NCBI RefSeq assembly: GCF_003590145.2
Contig: NZ_CP060436.1
Location: forward strand, 902,001 to 966,000
From: Pseudooceanicola algae
GTDB lineage: Bacteria > Pseudomonadota > Alphaproteobacteria > Rhodobacterales > Rhodobacteraceae
Direction: 5' to 3'
DNA: 64,000 nt
Shown here: piece by piece, positions 14,774-23,301 of the stretch
How positions within the stretch are numbered: the first letter of the stretch is position 1
Layout: each line of letters starts with the position of its first letter
The notes under the pieces: model-generated
What the model was told of the DNA's origin: nothing
Seen by the model: the letters and a program-made list of their open reading frames with translations, nothing else
Databases searched by the model: none
Translations under genes and position numbers: made by a program

Positions 14774-15747
14774 TCGCGGCAAAGCTCCTGCTCGAACAAT
14801 TCGCCGCCGTTGGTTACGGTGCGGGTCTCGAAGTTGTAGCAATTCTCGGTCTCTGACGGGGCGTATTTGATGTAGTAGTCTGCGCCCTGATAGCTGTAGG
14901 TCATCGTCCGCTCGCCGTCCTCGCCCTGCACAAACACCAGATCGTCAACCCCGCCCCGCGGCGGCTGGCCTGCCTCTGGTCCGGGCCCGCCATCGGCAGC
15001 ACCCAGAGGGCGCACGCGCGGCAAGGCATCGATGTCAGGCACTTCGCCCATCAGGCACTGGATGATGTAAGGCGCGCCTTCGGAGGTGTGGTAGCGATAA
15101 CCGAAGACGTCATCGGCCTGCCCATTGCACACATCCAACACGCCACCCGCAATTGCCGTCCCGTCCGGATTGCTGTCCGCGTAGATAGGGAAGCCGTCAA
15201 AGGCCCAACCGATGATCGCATCCGGGCCCTTGTTCGCCATCTGGTCAATCATGCAGGTCGGTGCGGCGTGATAGTGATAATCGTCACCCCGGCCCGCATG
15301 GCCACCGCAGGCGTCAAGCTGCCCGGTTGCGACGGTGTCCAGATCCGCCTGATAGGTTCCCAGATCCTCTTGCGACATCTCTCCACCAGCGGTGTAATCA
15401 TAGATCGGCACACCGTTCACGGCGACGCCAAGCGCCGCGTCACGGGTGTGCGGCGCCGTCCCAAGCGTCGGGGCCAACGTGATGGGCGAGGCGTAGTTCA
15501 CCGCAGGCACGGGCACCTGCTCATTGGTACCGGTGATGCCGGTCATCATCTCGTGGTCCGGATAGGTATCGCCCGAGATCAAGGCGTGGTTATCGGCGCA
15601 GGTGACCGTGACGACATCGTCAAAGCCCGCCGCCGCGACCGAGGCAGTGACGGCCTCGCAATGAAATGTTGCCTCGTGGGCTTGCCCAGTGGTGGCGTAA
15701 AGACAGGCAAGGACGGCGAAGCCGGGCGAAAGGACGAGATGACGCAC
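14770..15747 (-). CDS. Secreted YHYH-domain protein
   Basis: 325 residues from a GTG at 15747 with AGAGGA seven to eight bases upstream; the longer frame to 16005 lacks signal-peptide character. After the signal peptide come a Cys-containing head, the NHALISGDTYPDHEMMTG segment, GVPIYDYTAGGEMS, and the family-defining DYHYHAAP followed by GWAFDGFPIYAD. YHYH proteins are secreted or surface proteins of unknown activity, often near PEBP genes as here. First gene of a three-gene secreted operon. Confidence 0.88.
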   Translation of the reverse strand: MRHLVLSPGFAVLACLYATTGQAHEATFHCEAVTASVAAAGFDDVVTVTCADNHALISGDTYPDHEMMTGITGTNEQVPVPAVNYASPITLAPTLGTAPHTRDAALGVAVNGVPIYDYTAGGEMSQEDLGTYQADLDTVATGQLDACGGHAGRGDDYHYHAAPTCMIDQMANKGPDAIIGWAFDGFPIYADSNPDGTAIAGGVLDVCNGQADDVFGYRYHTSEGAPYIIQCLMGEVPDIDALPRVRPLGAADGGPGPEAGQPPRGGVDDLVFVQGEDGERTMTYSYQGADYYIKYAPSETENCYNFETRTVTNGGELFEQELCRE

Positions 15748-16205
15748 AGGTTTTCCTCTGAAAAGGTTCGTGACCGTATGAGAGTCTGAACGTTGTGTTC
15801 GGGCATTTCCGTCGGTTCCTGATCGCGGTTTTTGCGACAAAAAGCTCGGCCAGCGGGCACGCTTCCGGGCATAATTCGACGTTGCACTTGCTTGGATACA
15901 TAGGAGGGAAACAGTGTTCGTCAATGAAAGCCAACGGCGCCTCGTCTTTCTGAACGCCGCCTTGGGCGCGGCGCAAAAGCACAATCTCTCCACAGAGACG
16001 ATCAAGCATGTAAGATACTGCTGGATGCACGATCACCGGCTTTTGCCAAGCTGCGGCGCGGTATCAGGTGTGCCGGTGATCGGCGGCACTGGGCCGCAGA
16101 CGTCGCGCGACCCAGAGGCGGATCTTGCTGTGGAAGGCCCGCCGACTGCGCATAGCGAAAATTGGAGACATACGCAGTTGATGGCCGCGCAATGCGGGCG
16201 GGGCA
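15748..16205. other. Intergenic region, no gene seen
   Basis: About 460 bp between the YHYH gene start and the hairpin after pgm. A plus-strand frame from 15914 begins in a protein-like way but soon becomes Pro/Ser/Arg-rich and runs into the pgm gene antisense; I do not call it. The YHYH operon promoter should lie near 15770-15900. Confidence 0.4.
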
Positions 16206-16227: not shown

Positions 16228-18349
<2,122 letters not shown>

Positions 18350-18369
18350 TTGGCTCCGGCGGTAGGGAT
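18350..18369. repeat. Left attachment repeat (orphan tRNA-Asn 3' end)
   Basis: Twenty bases (TTGGCTCCGG then CGGTAGGGAT) identical to 23226-23245, the CCA end, acceptor strand and part of the T arm of tRNA-Asn. After one mismatch, GAA also matches. No rest of a tRNA follows, so it is an attachment-site scar rather than a second tRNA gene. Confidence 0.85.
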
Positions 18370-18681
18370 GGAAGCACTTGTTGTATAACTTGCTGAAAAC
18401 TAACAGTTAATTCTGTCCGGAAAATGGGCTTGGTTTGGTCTTGTGTATCAACCACAGAACATAACGGGATCGACCTGACGGGCGCAAGGGAGGATTTCTT
18501 CACAGGGTGCCGTGTGGCGTGAACGGCCCGAAGCTGCCTTCCACCCACCACGCGGCGCCGCATTGTCGGGGATGAATGTCTGCTGTGCGGACTCGTCCGA
18601 CATTCGCCTTGCCGCAGCCCCTCAGTATCTAGCGCTGAATAGCGCTTCGGCATTCGGCAAGCGCATCAAACCCTTTAAGGT
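18370..18681. other. Non-coding stretch inside the left end of the island
   Basis: About 310 bp with no gene I can support. A 107-codon minus-strand frame (18330-18653) covers it, but it includes the attachment repeat and has no recognisable domain. Confidence 0.45.
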
Positions 18682-19047
18682 TTAGGGCTCTGCAGGCTCC
18701 CAAAGTTCTATCGGGTTTCCTTCTGGATCGTGGATGCGTGCAAACTGTCCCACCCCATCCATGCTGACGATGTCACCACTGTCGATGCCTGCTGCATTGA
18801 GTTCCGCTAGCGCGGAAGTAAGGTTTTCAACACGAAAGTTGAGCATAAACGCATGATCTTTTGAGAAATAATCTGTGTCATGGGCGAAGGGTGAGAGGAT
18901 GGTAACTCCCGCTTCCGTGATCCAAGGTTCCATTGTTGCCGACGTTGGGGCAGGATCGATCCCCAGGTGGGTTTGATACCATTCAGCCAAAGCGTTTGGG
19001 TCTTTGGCCCTGAAAAACAAACCACCAATTCCGAGAGTTTTTACCAT
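18682..19047 (-). CDS. VOC-family (glyoxalase/bleomycin-resistance-like) protein
   Basis: About 121 residues from ATG 19047 (MVKTLGIGGLFFRAKDP); an ATG four codons upstream is also possible. The beta-alpha-beta-beta-beta repeat is visible: GLFFRAKDPNALAEWYQTHLG at the start, and FARIHDPEGNPIELWEP at the end with the metal-ligand Glu. Members include glyoxalases, dioxygenases and small-molecule-sequestering resistance proteins; the substrate here is unknown. It is cargo of the tRNA-Asn island and stands alone. Confidence 0.88.
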   Translation of the reverse strand: MVKTLGIGGLFFRAKDPNALAEWYQTHLGIDPAPTSATMEPWITEAGVTILSPFAHDTDYFSKDHAFMLNFRVENLTSALAELNAAGIDSGDIVSMDGVGQFARIHDPEGNPIELWEPAEP

Positions 19048-19301
19048 GGAAATTTCCATCTTCTGTTGGACAAAGCCTGTCGTTTCAGTTGAACAGAAAA
19101 CTAAAACGAAAGCAATTTCGCAACCTCAACTTGGGTCCGGTATAGGCACAAACCCGACCTCGGATGCGGCGCGGCATCGGGCCTTCAAAACGTTTGATCG
19201 GATGTAAGGAGGGCCCAAACCGGACATTCACAAACGTCAACGACGCTGCAGCGTAGTTTCCCTAATGCCGACCTTCACTGCGAGCGCTCCTAGGTCCGGT
19301 A

Positions 19302-19496
19302 TTAGCAAGTAGCCGAATTTTTTAGGGTGCGCTCAGCGATCCGGCGGCGCTCAAAATGGGCGATGGATGCAAAGACGGGGAAAATCAGCTCTCCGGCTGG
19401 CATTGTCGTGTCGATATCCTCGGCCAAGGATCGAAAACCCGTGCCGCGTTCTTTGATAGTTATCATGGTGTCGAGAAGATCGCGCAACGGGTGATG
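19302..19496 (-). pseudogene. Fragment of a serine recombinase (Tn3-type resolvase)
   Basis: About 62 codons match the second half of a resolvase catalytic domain: RDLLDTMITIKERGTGFRSL, DTTMPAGELIFPVFASIAHF, then ERRRIAERT. The catalytic-Ser N-terminus and the DNA-binding C-terminus are both absent; upstream the frame ends at a stop (19497-19499). It marks an earlier transposon or resolvase gene in the island. Confidence 0.8.
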
Positions 19497-20036
19497 TCAC
19501 GTGGAATACGGTGTTTCGACTGGCTTGGTGTAAGCACCCTCGTAACGACGCGCGTCGCCAAATCGCTTGGTTTATGCAGGCGTTCCCTGTTTTGGGATGT
19601 TGGCGACAAAATGTCGCCGAAAAATCAGCGTCGCTCTACGTTTTCCGATAATTATTCCGGAAGTTGTTGACTGATCGTTTTGGTAAGATTAGCTCTTAAC
19701 GGTGAAGGATCGTTCCGGTTTGATTGAGGCTTGCATCGTCGAAGGGCGCGACGTCCGTGGGAAAAAGGAGGAGCCGTTTCATGTTTGTTATGGCTTTGAG
19801 ATATAAACCTTTTTGCCAAAAACTGGGCGCCTGGTGGTTTTGGGCTGTTGGTGAAACTCGAGCTTATCCGATGATCTTACCCTATGATCACGAAAACCCT
19901 CCAATACCCCAAACGTTTTGTCATCGATATTTGGAATGGTTAAAAGATTTATCTTTCGTGCGGAAATTAAGCATGACAAAAACGACCGTTTCAGATTGTC
20001 GTCGCAGTCCATGGTAATGTTCTGAGCCGACACACT
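19497..20036. other. AT-rich stretch, no supported gene
   Basis: About 540 bp of markedly lower GC than the surroundings. A plus-strand frame (19724-20017) and a minus-strand frame (19788-20033) overlap each other; neither shows a domain or an obvious ribosome-binding site. It may contain the promoter of the cassette that starts at 20037. Confidence 0.4.
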
Positions 20037-20363
20037 ATGACTTTGGATTTCAACCGATTACTGTTCTTGCTCTCCTCGGCATCAATTGCAATTATTTTTT
20101 TAGTTTTGGCAGCAGTAGCAATCGATTTAGTGGTTCCACCAAGTGGAACAGTGGGAAGCTACGTTAACTACAGAAAACTGGCAAAGACACTGATGTTTCT
20201 ATATGGAACGATGTTTGCACCTGGCGTGCTAGTTGCCATTATCTATATAGTATATGCGCCCTCCCGCATTCATGGCGAACGTAAGTCTTATGCACTGGAA
20301 ATAATTACCGCTTTCGTAGCGGTTCAGACCGTCTTCACTTTCACTATTCTTCAAGACGAATGA
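20037..20363 (+). CDS. Small three-span membrane protein, unknown
   Basis: 108 residues with three hydrophobic segments: about 8-33 (FLLSSASIAIIFLVLAAVAI), 50-73 (TLMFLYGTMFAPGVLVAIIY) and 87-104 (IITAFVAVQTVFTFTIL). A short positively charged loop with SRIHGERKS lies between the last two. Base composition is AT-rich unlike flanking core genes, consistent with transfer. The stop is 11 bp before the ATG of the next, broken gene, so the two form a cassette. I recognise no family. Its size and setting resemble membrane effectors of defence or toxin-antitoxin cassettes, but there is no direct evidence. Confidence 0.65.
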   Translation: MTLDFNRLLFLLSSASIAIIFLVLAAVAIDLVVPPSGTVGSYVNYRKLAKTLMFLYGTMFAPGVLVAIIYIVYAPSRIHGERKSYALEIITAFVAVQTVFTFTILQDE

Positions 20364-20374
20364 GGTAATTCAGC

Positions 20375-20766
20375 ATGGCTGATGAAACACCTTCTTTGAT
20401 TTCGATAGCGATAAGTTGCAGACAAAGAACCGTTCGTTTGAATGGATTTCAGATGAATCGAGAGTTTCACATGTTCCTTCACCATCTGAGATCTTCGAGA
20501 CGGTTAGAAACATAAAGGATGTAAGTGATGCCTGAATTGTAAGAGGTAAAATGGTTGCGCAATTTTTGATAAAGTTCCTTAAATGTCTCACTCAGAACTT
20601 TAGAAATCGCGGCAAAATTAATGGAAAGAAATGTACCGTGAGAGTAGAGCTGGGTGGCGGTAACTTTGCCCAGCAGCTCTCAAGCGCGACGGCGGAGTCT
20701 GGGCGGCTATCTGACTTTTTAGACGATCTATTGGTAAGAGTGAAAGATACAGCTATCGCCTCTTAA
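20375..20766 (+). pseudogene. Broken second gene of the AT-rich island cassette
   Basis: An ATG at 20375 is preceded by GAGG at good spacing and opens MADETPS. The coding signal then moves to another frame near 20391, where it reads FDFDSDKLQTKNRSFEW and VPSPSEIFETVRNIKDV, meets a TGA at 20533-20535, and continues in the same frame as IVRGKMVAQFLIKFLKCL and VRVELGGGNFAQQLSSATAE to a stop at 20764-20766. One frameshift and one nonsense change would restore a protein of about 130 residues. No family recognised. The last 71 codons alone could be read from the internal ATG at 20551. Confidence 0.6.
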
Positions 20767-20844
20767 CAGGCTACCTAAGCTGCCGTTGGTACGGGGTGCA
20801 GCGAACGGTAGCTCCCCACCCATCTCCCTCGCCATCCTGTCCCC

Positions 20845-21396
20845 TTAAATCACCTTGAGCAATTGTTCGATTGCCTGTGCCAGATCTGTTAACGGGGCGG
20901 ATTTGCGGTAAACTTTGTCGTGAATATCTTTGCCTTCATGACCGATGATGTCCCGGACAAATTTGTCGTCTACACCTGTGTGATCCAATTGGTTCTGGAC
21001 GTAATGCCGTAGGCTGTGAAACGAGAGGTTTTTGCCCTCTGTTCCTAGCTCCTGGTCGATAATCTGGCGCATGCGGCGTCCGACTTTACGGCCAAAGGCG
21101 TTGTTTCCCGCTTCATATAGGTCCGGGAAGAGACTGATTTCATTGGTGCTATTCGCTTTTCGGACGTGATCGAGAAACCCCAGATCAATCAGGTGCGAAT
21201 GGATCGGGATCATGCGGCGCGATGACAGGTTTTTGATGCGGCGCAGCTCTGAATCCTCAATGGAAAAGCACCAGATCCCTTCAATTTCAACGATGTCGGA
21301 CGGCGAAAGCCCTGCGATTTCTTCGCGCCTCCCCGGATTCATGCGTATAAACCCTGCGTGGATACACGCTCCAAAGCCGGGCCAATGGCGCGGCAA
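20845..21396 (-). pseudogene. N-terminally truncated tyrosine integrase
   Basis: About 180 codons covering only the catalytic half. Arg I sits in GRREEIAGLSP, the H-x-x-R box in SFHSLRHYVQNQL, the third His in DIIGHEGKD and the Tyr in DKVYRKSAP. The arm- and core-binding domains are missing and the first 20 codons no longer look like integrase. It resembles the intact integrase next to it in order and motif spelling (FRHY/LRHY, GH-G), so it is probably the relic of a related island. Confidence 0.82.
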
Positions 21397-21574
21397 AAGA
21401 CGTTGATCTCATATGAAAACGGTATTTGTCTTTGACCGGATTTGTTATGTTTGATTGTCGAATAAAATTTGCGCGCGGTTCCGAAATAGCCGCCGGAAAA
21501 GCTATGCACAGGGACAGACTATAGGTAGGTAAAGCTACCTCGTCTGCCCCTTGCGCCGGGGAGGCGCTCCGTCT

Positions 21575-21611
21575 GTTCGTAAAACCCATGCGGGGCATGT
21601 GTTTTACGAAC
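21575..21611. repeat. Long near-perfect palindrome between the two integrase genes
   Basis: GTTCGTAAAAC (21575-21585) is matched exactly by GTTTTACGAAC (21601-21611). Inside, CATG on each side extends the stem past a single mismatch, leaving a 5-base CGGGG loop. It lies 70 bp beyond the stop of the intact integrase. There is no T run, so it is not a classical terminator; a recombination, transfer-origin or regulatory role is possible. Confidence 0.75.
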
Positions 21612-21680
21612 AAACTGCGCGGCTGGCGTTGCCAACCTTGCCTGGCGTCCCACAGGGCGGACGCGAAAGCCCCACGATGC

Positions 21681-23105
21681 TCAAACGGTCCGGCGTGACA
21701 ACCGTTGATCGGGCCGCGCGACCGGCAGCCACGGCAGTTGGCGGATCGCCCCGGCCTTTGCCTCCAGCGGCGTTGTCTCGCTGTAGCGCTGCGAGGTAAT
21801 CGATCCACCGGCATGGCCCATGATATCCTTGCGGTCGGCCTCTGGCAGGTCGGGTATCCGGCCAAGCTGCGTCGCCACATAGTGCCGGAAACTGTGGAAC
21901 ACCTTGCCATCCCGATTGCCGTTGAGCCGGGTCTGGACCAGATTCCGGAAGCGGTAATCGAGCTGACCTCCGAACCCTTTGCCCTTGCGCGGGCGCAGGT
22001 CGGGAAAGAGATCGGCTTGCGGCCCGTGGCGGGCGATCTGGCGGGCGGCGTGGTCATTCAGGCCAAGATCCACCAGTTGCGGATGCAGGGGCAGGTCGCG
22101 TCTGGCCGTGAGCGATTTGAGAGCGCGATTGGCGTTCGGCGCGATGATCAGGGCGGGCAGGCCGTCCATCACGGTGATTTCGGCGGCTTTGAGAGCCGCG
22201 ATTTCCTCGCGCCGTGCGCCGGTCAGCGCGGCGATCATCGGCACCCAATAGAGCCCGTCTTGCACCAGCCGCACCCCGGGTTCCTGCCAGTGGGTCTTGT
22301 CCTTCCAGCCATGCCAGACAGGGTGGGTAAACAGCTTTTGCACATCACCGGCGTTAAAGGCGGGCCGCTCGTCACGCTCGCGTTGGCTCTTGCGCTGACG
22401 CAACGCGCCGAGGTCGAGATCGCCGACAGATGGCACGCCTTCAGCCCGCGCTTTGGTGAACAGCTGGCCGAGGTAATCCAGATTGCGGTTGATCGTTGTG
22501 ACCGACAAGCGCCTGTCCTCGCGCCCCCTGGCGTCTGCAATGATCTGGCGGATCGGCTTGTTCCGGTCCTTGGGCGATTTGCGATAGCTTTGCGGCAGTT
22601 GCTCCAGAACATCGACGAACACCGCCAGATGATGCTGTCGCAGCTGGCGCATGTCCTGAACGCCGGTGATCTCGCGGAAGAGATCAAAGACCTTGGTCAT
22701 CTGTGCAATCATCGCCTCGGACATGCCCGCCTTGCGCTTTTGCGCCATGAGACGGGTCGCAATGGCCTTGATCGAGGCGGAATAGGTCTCGATGCGTGGC
22801 TGCGCGTCAGATTTGGGCAGTGGCTTTGCCTGTGGCGGGCGACGGACGGGCAGGGGCTGGCCGAGTTCGGCTTGGATCACCCCCCGCAACCGATCAACCG
22901 TGCCCGCGTGATCGCAGCGGCCTTTGGCCATGTCCTCAAATGCCCGGGCGCTCTCGGCGGTCACCAGCGCGGCAAGGCGGCGGGCGGCGTTTGGATCAGG
23001 GGTTTGCAAGCTGATGAGGAAGGTCTTTCCACCAAGGGCGGTGGGGTAACGCCTGCGCCAATAATAAATCGCGTTGCGTCGGACGGTATGAGCGGCAAGG
23101 GCCAT
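21681..23105 (-). CDS. Tyrosine site-specific integrase of the island
   Basis: 474 residues, full length for a tRNA-targeting phage-type integrase. The N-terminus (YYWRRRYP, then GGKTFLISLQTPDP) is the arm-binding-type head common in rhodobacterial integrases. A core-binding helical region spans about 110-220. Catalytic residues: Arg in ALTGARREEIAAL, H-x-x-R in FHSFRHYVATQL, His in DIMGHAGG and Tyr in SQRYSETTP. It starts 122 bp from the end of tRNA-Asn, its probable target, and reads away from it. Confidence 0.95.
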   Translation of the reverse strand: MALAAHTVRRNAIYYWRRRYPTALGGKTFLISLQTPDPNAARRLAALVTAESARAFEDMAKGRCDHAGTVDRLRGVIQAELGQPLPVRRPPQAKPLPKSDAQPRIETYSASIKAIATRLMAQKRKAGMSEAMIAQMTKVFDLFREITGVQDMRQLRQHHLAVFVDVLEQLPQSYRKSPKDRNKPIRQIIADARGREDRRLSVTTINRNLDYLGQLFTKARAEGVPSVGDLDLGALRQRKSQRERDERPAFNAGDVQKLFTHPVWHGWKDKTHWQEPGVRLVQDGLYWVPMIAALTGARREEIAALKAAEITVMDGLPALIIAPNANRALKSLTARRDLPLHPQLVDLGLNDHAARQIARHGPQADLFPDLRPRKGKGFGGQLDYRFRNLVQTRLNGNRDGKVFHSFRHYVATQLGRIPDLPEADRKDIMGHAGGSITSQRYSETTPLEAKAGAIRQLPWLPVARPDQRLSRRTV

Positions 23106-23225
23106 CGGTCACTCCTGTATGAGCGCCCAGAAAACCGTGCAAAAATAACCATTTGTGTATCACGCATGTGTATCAGCCGGGGCTGAAATACCAATTCCAC
23201 ATGTTCGTCAGAGACTTAAGGGAAA

Positions 23226-23245
23226 TTGGCTCCGGCGGTAGGGAT
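23226..23245. repeat. Right attachment repeat inside tRNA-Asn
   Basis: The copy of the 20-bp repeat that forms the 3' end of the functional tRNA-Asn gene; identical to 18350-18369. Confidence 0.85.
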
Positions 23246-23301
23246 CGAACCTACGACCAATTGATTAACAGTCAACTGCTCTACCGCTGAGCTACGCCGG
23301 A
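23227..23301 (-). tRNA. tRNA-Asn (anticodon GTT)
   Basis: Folds as a standard cloverleaf: acceptor TCCGGCG pairs with CGCCGGA, discriminator G, encoded CCA; D arm GCTC...GAGC; anticodon loop CTGTTAA between GTTGA and TCAAT; T arm GTAGG TTCGATC CCTAC. Anticodon GTT reads Asn codons. Its 3' end is the attachment site of the island. Confidence 0.96.

What the first reader, a model, noticed from the sequence alone, without database searches (positions are those of the whole stretch)
18350..23245. Small island bounded by a 20-bp copy of the tRNA-Asn 3' end
TTGGCTCCGG + CGGTAGGGAT at 18350-18369 is identical to the 3' end of tRNA-Asn at 23226-23245. A full integrase sits next to the tRNA, and the enclosed DNA is partly AT-rich with recombinase relics. 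This fixes both ends of a 4.9-kb element and leaves a functional tRNA.
Basis: seen in the sequence. Interest (0 to 1): 0.75.

Follow-up and report, generated by a model that had tools for sequence, protein, structure and literature searches.

The report
Small hitch-hiking island at tRNA-Asn gene
A 4.9-kb piece of foreign DNA sits at the end of a bacterial tRNA gene; it has an intact insertion enzyme and, it appears, a start signal for transfer between cells, but no enzyme to read that signal, so it probably travels only with help from related elements.

Summary
The 20-bp repeat (18350-18369 = 23226-23245) is exact and occurs only twice in the 4.09-Mb genome. Genomes of two other genera carry the empty site: the window's left flank (18100-18349) runs straight into an intact tRNA-Asn. 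A contig titled uncultured Sulfitobacter (L033) carries a homologous 8.1-kb element at the same tRNA gene, with an 84%-identical integrase, the same ends and a different interior.

A 72-bp hairpin block, the oriT candidate, lies upstream of the relaxase gene in 10 of 10 unbroken relaxase loci compared (a fragmented one in G034 lacks it). The window element has this block (21502-21573, 94% identical to L033) but no relaxase. I read it as a relaxase-less integrative mobilizable element ("MGI"/"iOriT"). Its own genome showed no relaxase of this family and no VirB4. Genome G329 holds a parallel pair: a complete element at tRNA-Arg and a relaxase-less sibling at tRNA-Ser. Integration is well supported; transfer is inferred. 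New variant of a known kind.

The parts
18100..18349 (.). Left flank; in G109 and G242 joined directly to an intact tRNA-Asn (empty site)
   Evidence: also borders the distal repeat copy in G014, G018 and G378
18350..18369 (+). Distal attachment-site copy (20 bp of the tRNA-Asn 3' end)
18350..18498 (.). Distal arm, 78.5% identical to the distal arm of the L033 element
18442..18450 (+). TGTGTATCA, candidate integrase arm site (1 of 3)
18682..19059 (-). VOC/glyoxalase-like protein, 125 aa (cargo)
   Evidence: PF18029 E 3.5e-6
19302..19487 (-). Serine recombinase (resolvase) fragment, relic
   Evidence: PF00239 positions 79-134 of 145
20037..20363 (+). 108-aa hydrophobic protein, AT-rich cargo; no match (E 0.001) in the other 393 of 394 family genomes searched
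20551..20766 (+). 71-aa ORF, cargo, unknown
20845..21396 (-). C-terminal half of a second tyrosine integrase; 62-64% identical to integrases beside tRNA-Asn in G021 and G034; relic
21307..21661 (.). Stretch downstream of the integrase gene; 85% identical to the stretch between integrase and relaxase genes in L033
21502..21573 (-). Candidate origin of transfer: 72-bp hairpin block found upstream of the MobV-like relaxase gene in 10 of 10 unbroken relaxase loci compared
21562..21624 (.). 30-bp inverted repeat just downstream of the integrase gene (terminator or part of the oriT region)
21681..23105 (-). Tyrosine integrase, 474 aa, DUF6538 + Phage_integrase, open reading frame intact
23154..23175 (+). 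Two TGTGTATCA copies (23154, 23167), candidate integrase arm sites
23226..23245 (+). Proximal attachment-site copy at the tRNA-Asn 3' end
23227..23301 (-). tRNA-Asn(gtt), intact target gene

Best explanation
18350-23245 is an integrated element that entered the 3' end of tRNA-Asn by site-specific recombination, most simply by its own DUF6538 tyrosine integrase, leaving a complete tRNA gene. It is a relaxase-less relative of an integrative mobilizable element (IME) such as the one in L033. It has both recombination arms with three TGTGTATCA sites, the integrase, and a 72-bp candidate origin-of-transfer block. It has no relaxase gene; the L033-like sequence stops at 21307, where an old integrase fragment and other cargo begin. 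That the relaxase was lost here, rather than gained in L033, is inferred. Most likely life cycle: the integrase excises a circle of about 4.9 kb; a MobV-like relaxase and a conjugation pore from another element act on the oriT block in trans; the integrase reinserts the element at tRNA-Asn in the recipient. Shown by sequence: ends, empty site, target, integrase conservation, presence of the block, absence of the relaxase. Inferred: that the block is an oriT, that TGTGTATCA is bound by the integrase, and that the element still excises and moves.
For: Unique repeat. Empty site in 2 genomes of other genera. L033: integrase 84% aa, dN/dS 0.19, arms 78-85% identical, 8,094-bp element, rest of the interior unalignable. 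TGTGTATCA: 3 copies in 64 kb, all in the arms (shuffle mean 0.06; 0 of 100 shuffles reached 3), at matching places in L033. L033 relaxase: PF01076 E 3e-5, MobV NF041497 E 4e-5. The block lies upstream of that relaxase in 10 of 10 unbroken loci. It is better conserved than the aligned stretch around it between window and L033: 68 of 72 against 237 of 285 columns, Fisher p 0.014. Scan of 394 genomes with model R1: 12 hits in 10 genomes, namely the 9 with a strong relaxase match plus the window's own. No relaxase match in the element. Parallel relaxase-less sibling in G329.
Against: No excision or transfer was observed. No excisionase gene was recognised. Model R1 was built from blocks in 8 of the 9 relaxase genomes, so their recovery is by construction. 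The fragmented relaxase of G034 (L168, 13 kb) has no block near it; G034's block is about 108 kb away. The 12 genomes with only weak relaxase matches (E 8e-21 to 3e-11) have no R1 hit. The hairpin shows no compensatory changes, and the window copy breaks one stem pair. No nic site was identified. Of 7 relaxases scanned, only 2 pass Pfam's Mob_Pre cut-off. The TGTGTATCA motif was picked after looking at the arms. The own genome shows no VirB4 and no relaxase of this family at E 1e-10, so no helper is at hand. Two relics inside point to decay.
Confidence: 0.72

Rival explanations
1. A dead island: it integrated by the same mechanism, but loss of the relaxase and replacement of the interior ended its mobility, and the block at 21502-21573 is a leftover.
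For: Two recombinase relics, one broken stem pair in the block, no helper found in the genome, no recognised excisionase.
Against: Integrase open with pairwise dN/dS 0.19; both arms and all three TGTGTATCA sites kept; the block is better conserved than the stretch around it. dN/dS and conservation average over both lineages, so they do not exclude recent death.
Confidence: 0.22
2. The 72-bp block is the promoter or operator of the relaxase gene (or a regulatory RNA leader), not an oriT.
For: It lies 96-454 bp upstream of the relaxase gene on the same strand in 9 of 10 loci (coordinates).
Against: In L146 it is 1.55 kb upstream with an ORF of 333 aa on the other strand between. Three of 12 copies in 394 genomes have no relaxase match in the fetched surroundings (window, G034:C1:2426831, G329 tRNA-Ser island), and two of the three sit in tRNA islands.
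Confidence: 0.15
3. Remnant of a prophage or phage satellite rather than a conjugation-dependent element.
For: A phage-type tyrosine integrase at a tRNA gene.
Against: Among the seven ORFs scanned the only PHROG matches better than E 0.01 are integrase or invertase families. Only 4 of 50,697 phage records match the integrase at E 1e-5, all under 60% identity. The closest homologue carries a relaxase; no phage gene was recognised among its two large cargo ORFs.
Confidence: 0.03
4. The 20-bp match is coincidental or a duplicated tRNA fragment without an island.
For: None found.
Against: Empty sites and the L033 element with the same ends.
Confidence: 0.01

Closest known systems
IMEs devoid of relaxase (MGIs such as MGIVflInd1; 'iOriT' class)
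   Same: Own tyrosine integrase, no relaxase, carries a sequence related to the candidate oriT of a potential helper (PMC5704250 section 10 read; PMC11389934 passages read).
   Different: The Vibrio-type MGIs are 18-33 kb, gammaproteobacterial, encode an RDF and match the oriT of SXT-type ICEs, which supply a MobH relaxase. This one is 4.9 kb, probably alphaproteobacterial, has no recognised RDF, and matches the candidate oriT of other IMEs and plasmids with a MobV-like relaxase.
Canonical MobV-relaxase IMEs (Tn4451, Tn5520, IMESag-rpsI)
   Same: The L033 relative has integrase + MobV-like relaxase; no pore gene was recognised among its ORFs.
   Different: The window element lacks the relaxase. 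The 2017 review says that none of the described proteobacterial IMEs is a canonical, relaxase-bearing one (PMC5704250, passage).
tRNA-gene genomic islands of the Islander type
   Same: Tyrosine integrase, target gene restored, displaced fragment marks the far end (PMC4383910, abstract start seen in a search listing).
   Different: None at this level.
Other tRNA-Asn islands in the same genus (G006, G014, G018)
   Same: Same tRNA gene.
   Different: 46-bp repeats reaching the anticodon loop; integrases of the Arm-DNA-bind_3 type (G006 and G014 scanned); 12.6-15.8 kb long.

Membership tests
Relaxase-less IME (MGI / iOriT) | Site-specific integration with direct repeats and restored target | tested here: met
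Relaxase-less IME (MGI / iOriT) | Own integrase, open reading frame intact | tested here: met
Relaxase-less IME (MGI / iOriT) | No relaxase or pore genes in the element | tested here: met
   (relaxases of this family and VirB4 sought; six element ORFs scanned against Pfam)
Relaxase-less IME (MGI / iOriT) | oriT related to that of a potential helper | tested here: inconclusive
   Sequence block shared with 10 relaxase loci; oriT activity not shown
Relaxase-less IME (MGI / iOriT) | Excision and transfer with a helper | not testable with these tools
   Needs PCR and mating
Relaxase-less IME (MGI / iOriT) | Excisionase / RDF (reported for the Vibrio MGIs) | tested here: inconclusive
   None among the ORFs scanned; short ORFs not all scanned
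Canonical MobV IME | Relaxase encoded in the element | tested here: not met
   present in L033
ICE | Conjugation pore (VirB4) | tested here: not met
   PF03135: 0 matches in the whole genome
Prophage or phage satellite | Phage structural or packaging genes | tested here: not met
   (six ORFs of the element scanned besides the integrase)

The most novel reading that the evidence does not exclude
A group of tRNA-integrating mini-islands in this bacterial family (the window at tRNA-Asn, G329 at tRNA-Ser) has repeatedly shed the relaxase but kept integration ends and the oriT block. They would live as conjugative satellites of full MobV-like IMEs and plasmids, carrying defence or accessory cargo. 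In G329 the putative helper and satellite sit in one chromosome.
Probability: 0.4. Interest if true: 0.65.

Novelty: new variant of a known kind. Interest (0 to 1): 0.5.

Why it matters
Many small tRNA islands have an integrase and no visible way to move between cells. This one comes with a concrete, testable sequence for that step and a defined set of possible helpers. The helper/hitcher pair in G329 would let one test directly whether IMEs lose their relaxase and turn into satellites of their own relatives. The 2017 IME review (PMC5704250, passage) reports no canonical relaxase-bearing IME in Proteobacteria, so the L033-type family also fills a gap, unless it was described later in papers I did not see.

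Tried and rejected
pgm as the ancestral neighbour: rejected. tblastn with pgm at E 1e-5 hit none of 25 loci (L033-L057); they reach from 0.3 kb (L043; L033 has 0.4 kb beyond its far repeat copy) to 18.7 kb on that side. Of the 5 genomes that share the left flank, 4 could be checked further left (2.7 to 12.1 kb, no pgm); the G242 contig ends 127 bp left of the flank. The only listed near-identical pgm DNA match is G018:C12 (90%; that list was cut), while G018's tRNA-Asn is on C48.

Defence cargo in the window element: PADLOC gave 0 hits for the four window ORFs given. The 108-aa ORF has no match in the other 393 family genomes sampled. The integrase in plasmids and phages: distant or partial matches only (37 of 72,556 and 4 of 50,697 records). 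PDB search with the L033 relaxase gave no relaxase. Covariation in the oriT block: none; too conserved to test. Further degenerate copies of the repeat left of 18350: none convincing. Other copies of the block in the own genome: none beyond chance-level hits.

Whether 18100-18349 is plain chromosome or an arm left by an older element stays open: it is in only 4 of 394 sampled family genomes, own included, plus G014 and G018, and in G378 an integrase lies about 0.6 kb left of it.

Literature: 7 searches, 3 papers opened (PMC11389934 and PMC11104534 passages; PMC5704250 passages and section 10). No paper on this element family appeared in those listings; the library lacks most subscription journals and preprints.
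Full report
OBSERVATION. The 20-mer occurs at 18350-18369 and 23226-23245 only: 2 sites in the window with up to 3 mismatches, 0 of 100 shuffles reaching 2, and 2 sites in the 4.09-Mb, 4-contig genome with up to 2 mismatches. GC drops to 42-47% at 19.5-21.0 kb; outside the element it is mostly 58-69%. The integrase (474 aa) has a DUF6538 domain and a weak Phage_integrase match (22 bits, cut-off 27.1); PHROGs confirms integrase (E 2e-21).

EMPTY SITE. The DNA query tRNA-Asn + metallo-hydrolase gene matched in 22 of 22 genomes of the genus, the own one included. The 75-bp tRNA was identical in the 21 congeners and in L033 and L034; in later loci it was 94.7% (L114) to 100%. What lies on the island side differs between most species, with some pairs alike. 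A search with the window's left flank (18100-18349) in 394 family genomes found 4: own, G109, G242 and G378. In G109 and G242 the flank (79% and 76% identical) runs without interruption into an intact tRNA-Asn followed by the hydrolase gene, that is, the empty site. In G378 (tRNA-Asn 25.7 kb away), G014 and G018 the same flank (68-81% identical) instead borders a displaced tRNA-Asn 3' fragment at the far end of another island. So in 5 of 5 other genomes found with this flank, its right edge is the tRNA or its fragment. pgm was not found left of the flank in the 4 of these 5 with 2.7 to 12.1 kb to look at (the G242 contig ends there) and not beside tRNA-Asn in any of the loci. The flank is rare, and G378 has an integrase just left of it, so it may itself be an arm of an older element; this does not affect the boundary.

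HOMOLOGOUS ELEMENT. The one genome-contig scan gave 2 loci. L033 (NZ_CANMFS010000001.1, titled uncultured Sulfitobacter sp.) has an 84% identical integrase next to tRNA-Asn and a 21-bp copy of the tRNA end 8,094 bp away. Window and L033 share the distal arm (18350-18498, 78.5%) and the stretch from 21307 to the tRNA (about 85%). Nothing else between the repeats aligned (blastn E 0.01; tblastn of window ORFs E 1e-5). The integrase pair has dN 0.086, dS 0.448, ratio 0.19 over 467 codons. The 9-mer TGTGTATCA, noticed by eye in the arms, occurs 3 times in 64 kb: once in the distal and twice (13 bp apart) in the proximal arm, all in one orientation; shuffles give 0.06 on average. L033 has it at the same three places and nowhere else in 15.4 kb. 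I infer these are integrase arm-type sites.

TRANSFER MODULE. L033's interior encodes a 481-aa MobV-like relaxase (PF01076 E 3e-5, 24.3 bits against a cut-off of 25.5; NF041497 E 4e-5, far below its cut-off) and a 1,299-aa SMC-type ATPase whose best PADLOC match is LmuB of Lamassu (E 1.5e-20). In 394 family genomes the relaxase matches 21 at E 1e-10 or better, 9 of them at 2e-60 or better (G034's in fragments); the own genome is not among them. Around the 9 strong unbroken loci fetched (8 genomes), plus L033, a 72-bp block lies upstream of the relaxase gene on the same strand in 10 of 10, at 96-454 bp in nine and 1.55 kb in L146 (coordinates). The fragmented G034 relaxase (L168) has no block within the 13 kb fetched. 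The core is a hairpin, and the 381-nt stretch around it folds better than shuffles as single-stranded DNA (z -3.5). The window carries the block at 21502-21573 (-), 94% identical to L033; 50 of 76 columns are invariant in the set of 11, window included, and one stem pair is broken in the window copy alone. Between window and L033 the block has 68 of 72 identical columns, the rest of the BLAST-aligned stretch 237 of 285 (Fisher p 0.014; the p of 7e-4 also counted ends that do not align). No relaxase remnant is detectable in the element.

DISTRIBUTION. A covariance model of the block (R1) run on 394 family genomes gave 12 hits in 10 genomes: the 9 with a strong relaxase match plus the window's own. 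Because R1 was built from blocks in 8 of those 9, their recovery is by construction. What is informative is 1 hit genome among the other 385, and two extra copies with no relaxase match in the 20 kb around them (G034:C1:2426831, G329:C1:75960). In the other tRNA-Asn islands given, R1 found nothing above 20 bits (window 91.9; best of the rest L116, 19.4).

A PARALLEL CASE. In G329 a complete element sits at tRNA-Arg (L146: 16-bp repeat, oriT block, relaxase, DUF6538 integrase). A second, 3.7-kb island sits at tRNA-Ser (L167), bounded by a 20-bp copy of the tRNA-Ser 3' end. It has the oriT block, an AAA_15 ATPase, only a 101-aa ORF of integrase N-terminus, and no relaxase match. The two share 347 bp at the integrase end (84%) and 896 bp at the oriT end (85%). 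As in window versus L033, ends and block are kept and the middle differs.

WHAT THE REST OF THE WINDOW ELEMENT IS. At 21307 the L033-like DNA ends in the C-terminal half of a second integrase, 62-64% identical to integrases beside tRNA-Asn in G021 and G034: most simply a scar of recombination with another tRNA-Asn element. Further in are small AT-rich ORFs, one of them sought and without relatives, a serine-recombinase fragment and a VOC-family gene.

MECHANISM AND LIMITS. Integration at tRNA-Asn by the resident integrase is strongly supported. The transfer step is inferred: the block's place, hairpin and presence without a relaxase suggest oriT, but nicking is not shown. The own genome lacks a VirB4 match (PF03135; positive in 1 of 14 control genomes, Caulobacter) and a relaxase of this family, so movement would need an incoming helper. 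The class is known (MGIs / iOriT: PMC5704250 section 10 read, PMC11389934 passages read). New here, as far as my searches show, are the family, its MobV-like partner and the small size with a tyrosine integrase. The genome itself is unnamed; a Rhodobacteraceae-like origin is inferred from L033 (Sulfitobacter) and L034 (Gemmobacter), which share the tRNA-Asn/hydrolase gene order.

Noticed in passing
L167:7139-10902 and L146:6191-12160 (G329): Complete MobV-like element at tRNA-Arg and a relaxase-less sibling at tRNA-Ser with an ATPase cargo in the same chromosome: a possible helper/satellite pair.
   Followed up: partly
L033:10657-14556: 1,299-aa SMC-type ATPase with LmuB (Lamassu) similarity as cargo of the homologous element; no LmuA partner looked for.
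   Followed up: partly
L040, L048, L052 (G006, G014, G018): Other islands in the same tRNA-Asn use a 46-bp repeat that reaches the anticodon loop; they carry type I restriction-like genes (G014, named by eye from the ORF list), AbiTii (G018) and reverse-transcriptase genes (G006, G018).
   Followed up: partly
window 16228-17901: pgm is 90% identical in DNA (96% aa) to a copy on another contig of G018, while the tRNA-Asn/hydrolase stretch of G018 is 74%: likely a horizontal or rearranged segment left of the island.
   Followed up: no
window 15534-16105: 85% identical second copy in the same genome at C1:1418757-1419341; nature not determined.
   Followed up: no
L113:6979-8980 (G107:C11): An integrase of this family next to a 21-bp tRNA-Asn fragment with no tRNA gene in the 38 kb fetched; the relaxase and oriT block lie 23 kb away on the same contig.
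   Followed up: no
L056 (G006:C23:290793): A second complete tRNA-Asn about 41 kb from the first in G006.
   Followed up: no
L145:9758-10632 (G280): Only the C-terminal part of an integrase (82% identical to the window's) next to an oriT block, with relaxase and an AAA_13 ATPase ORF open: the opposite loss from the window element.
   Followed up: partly
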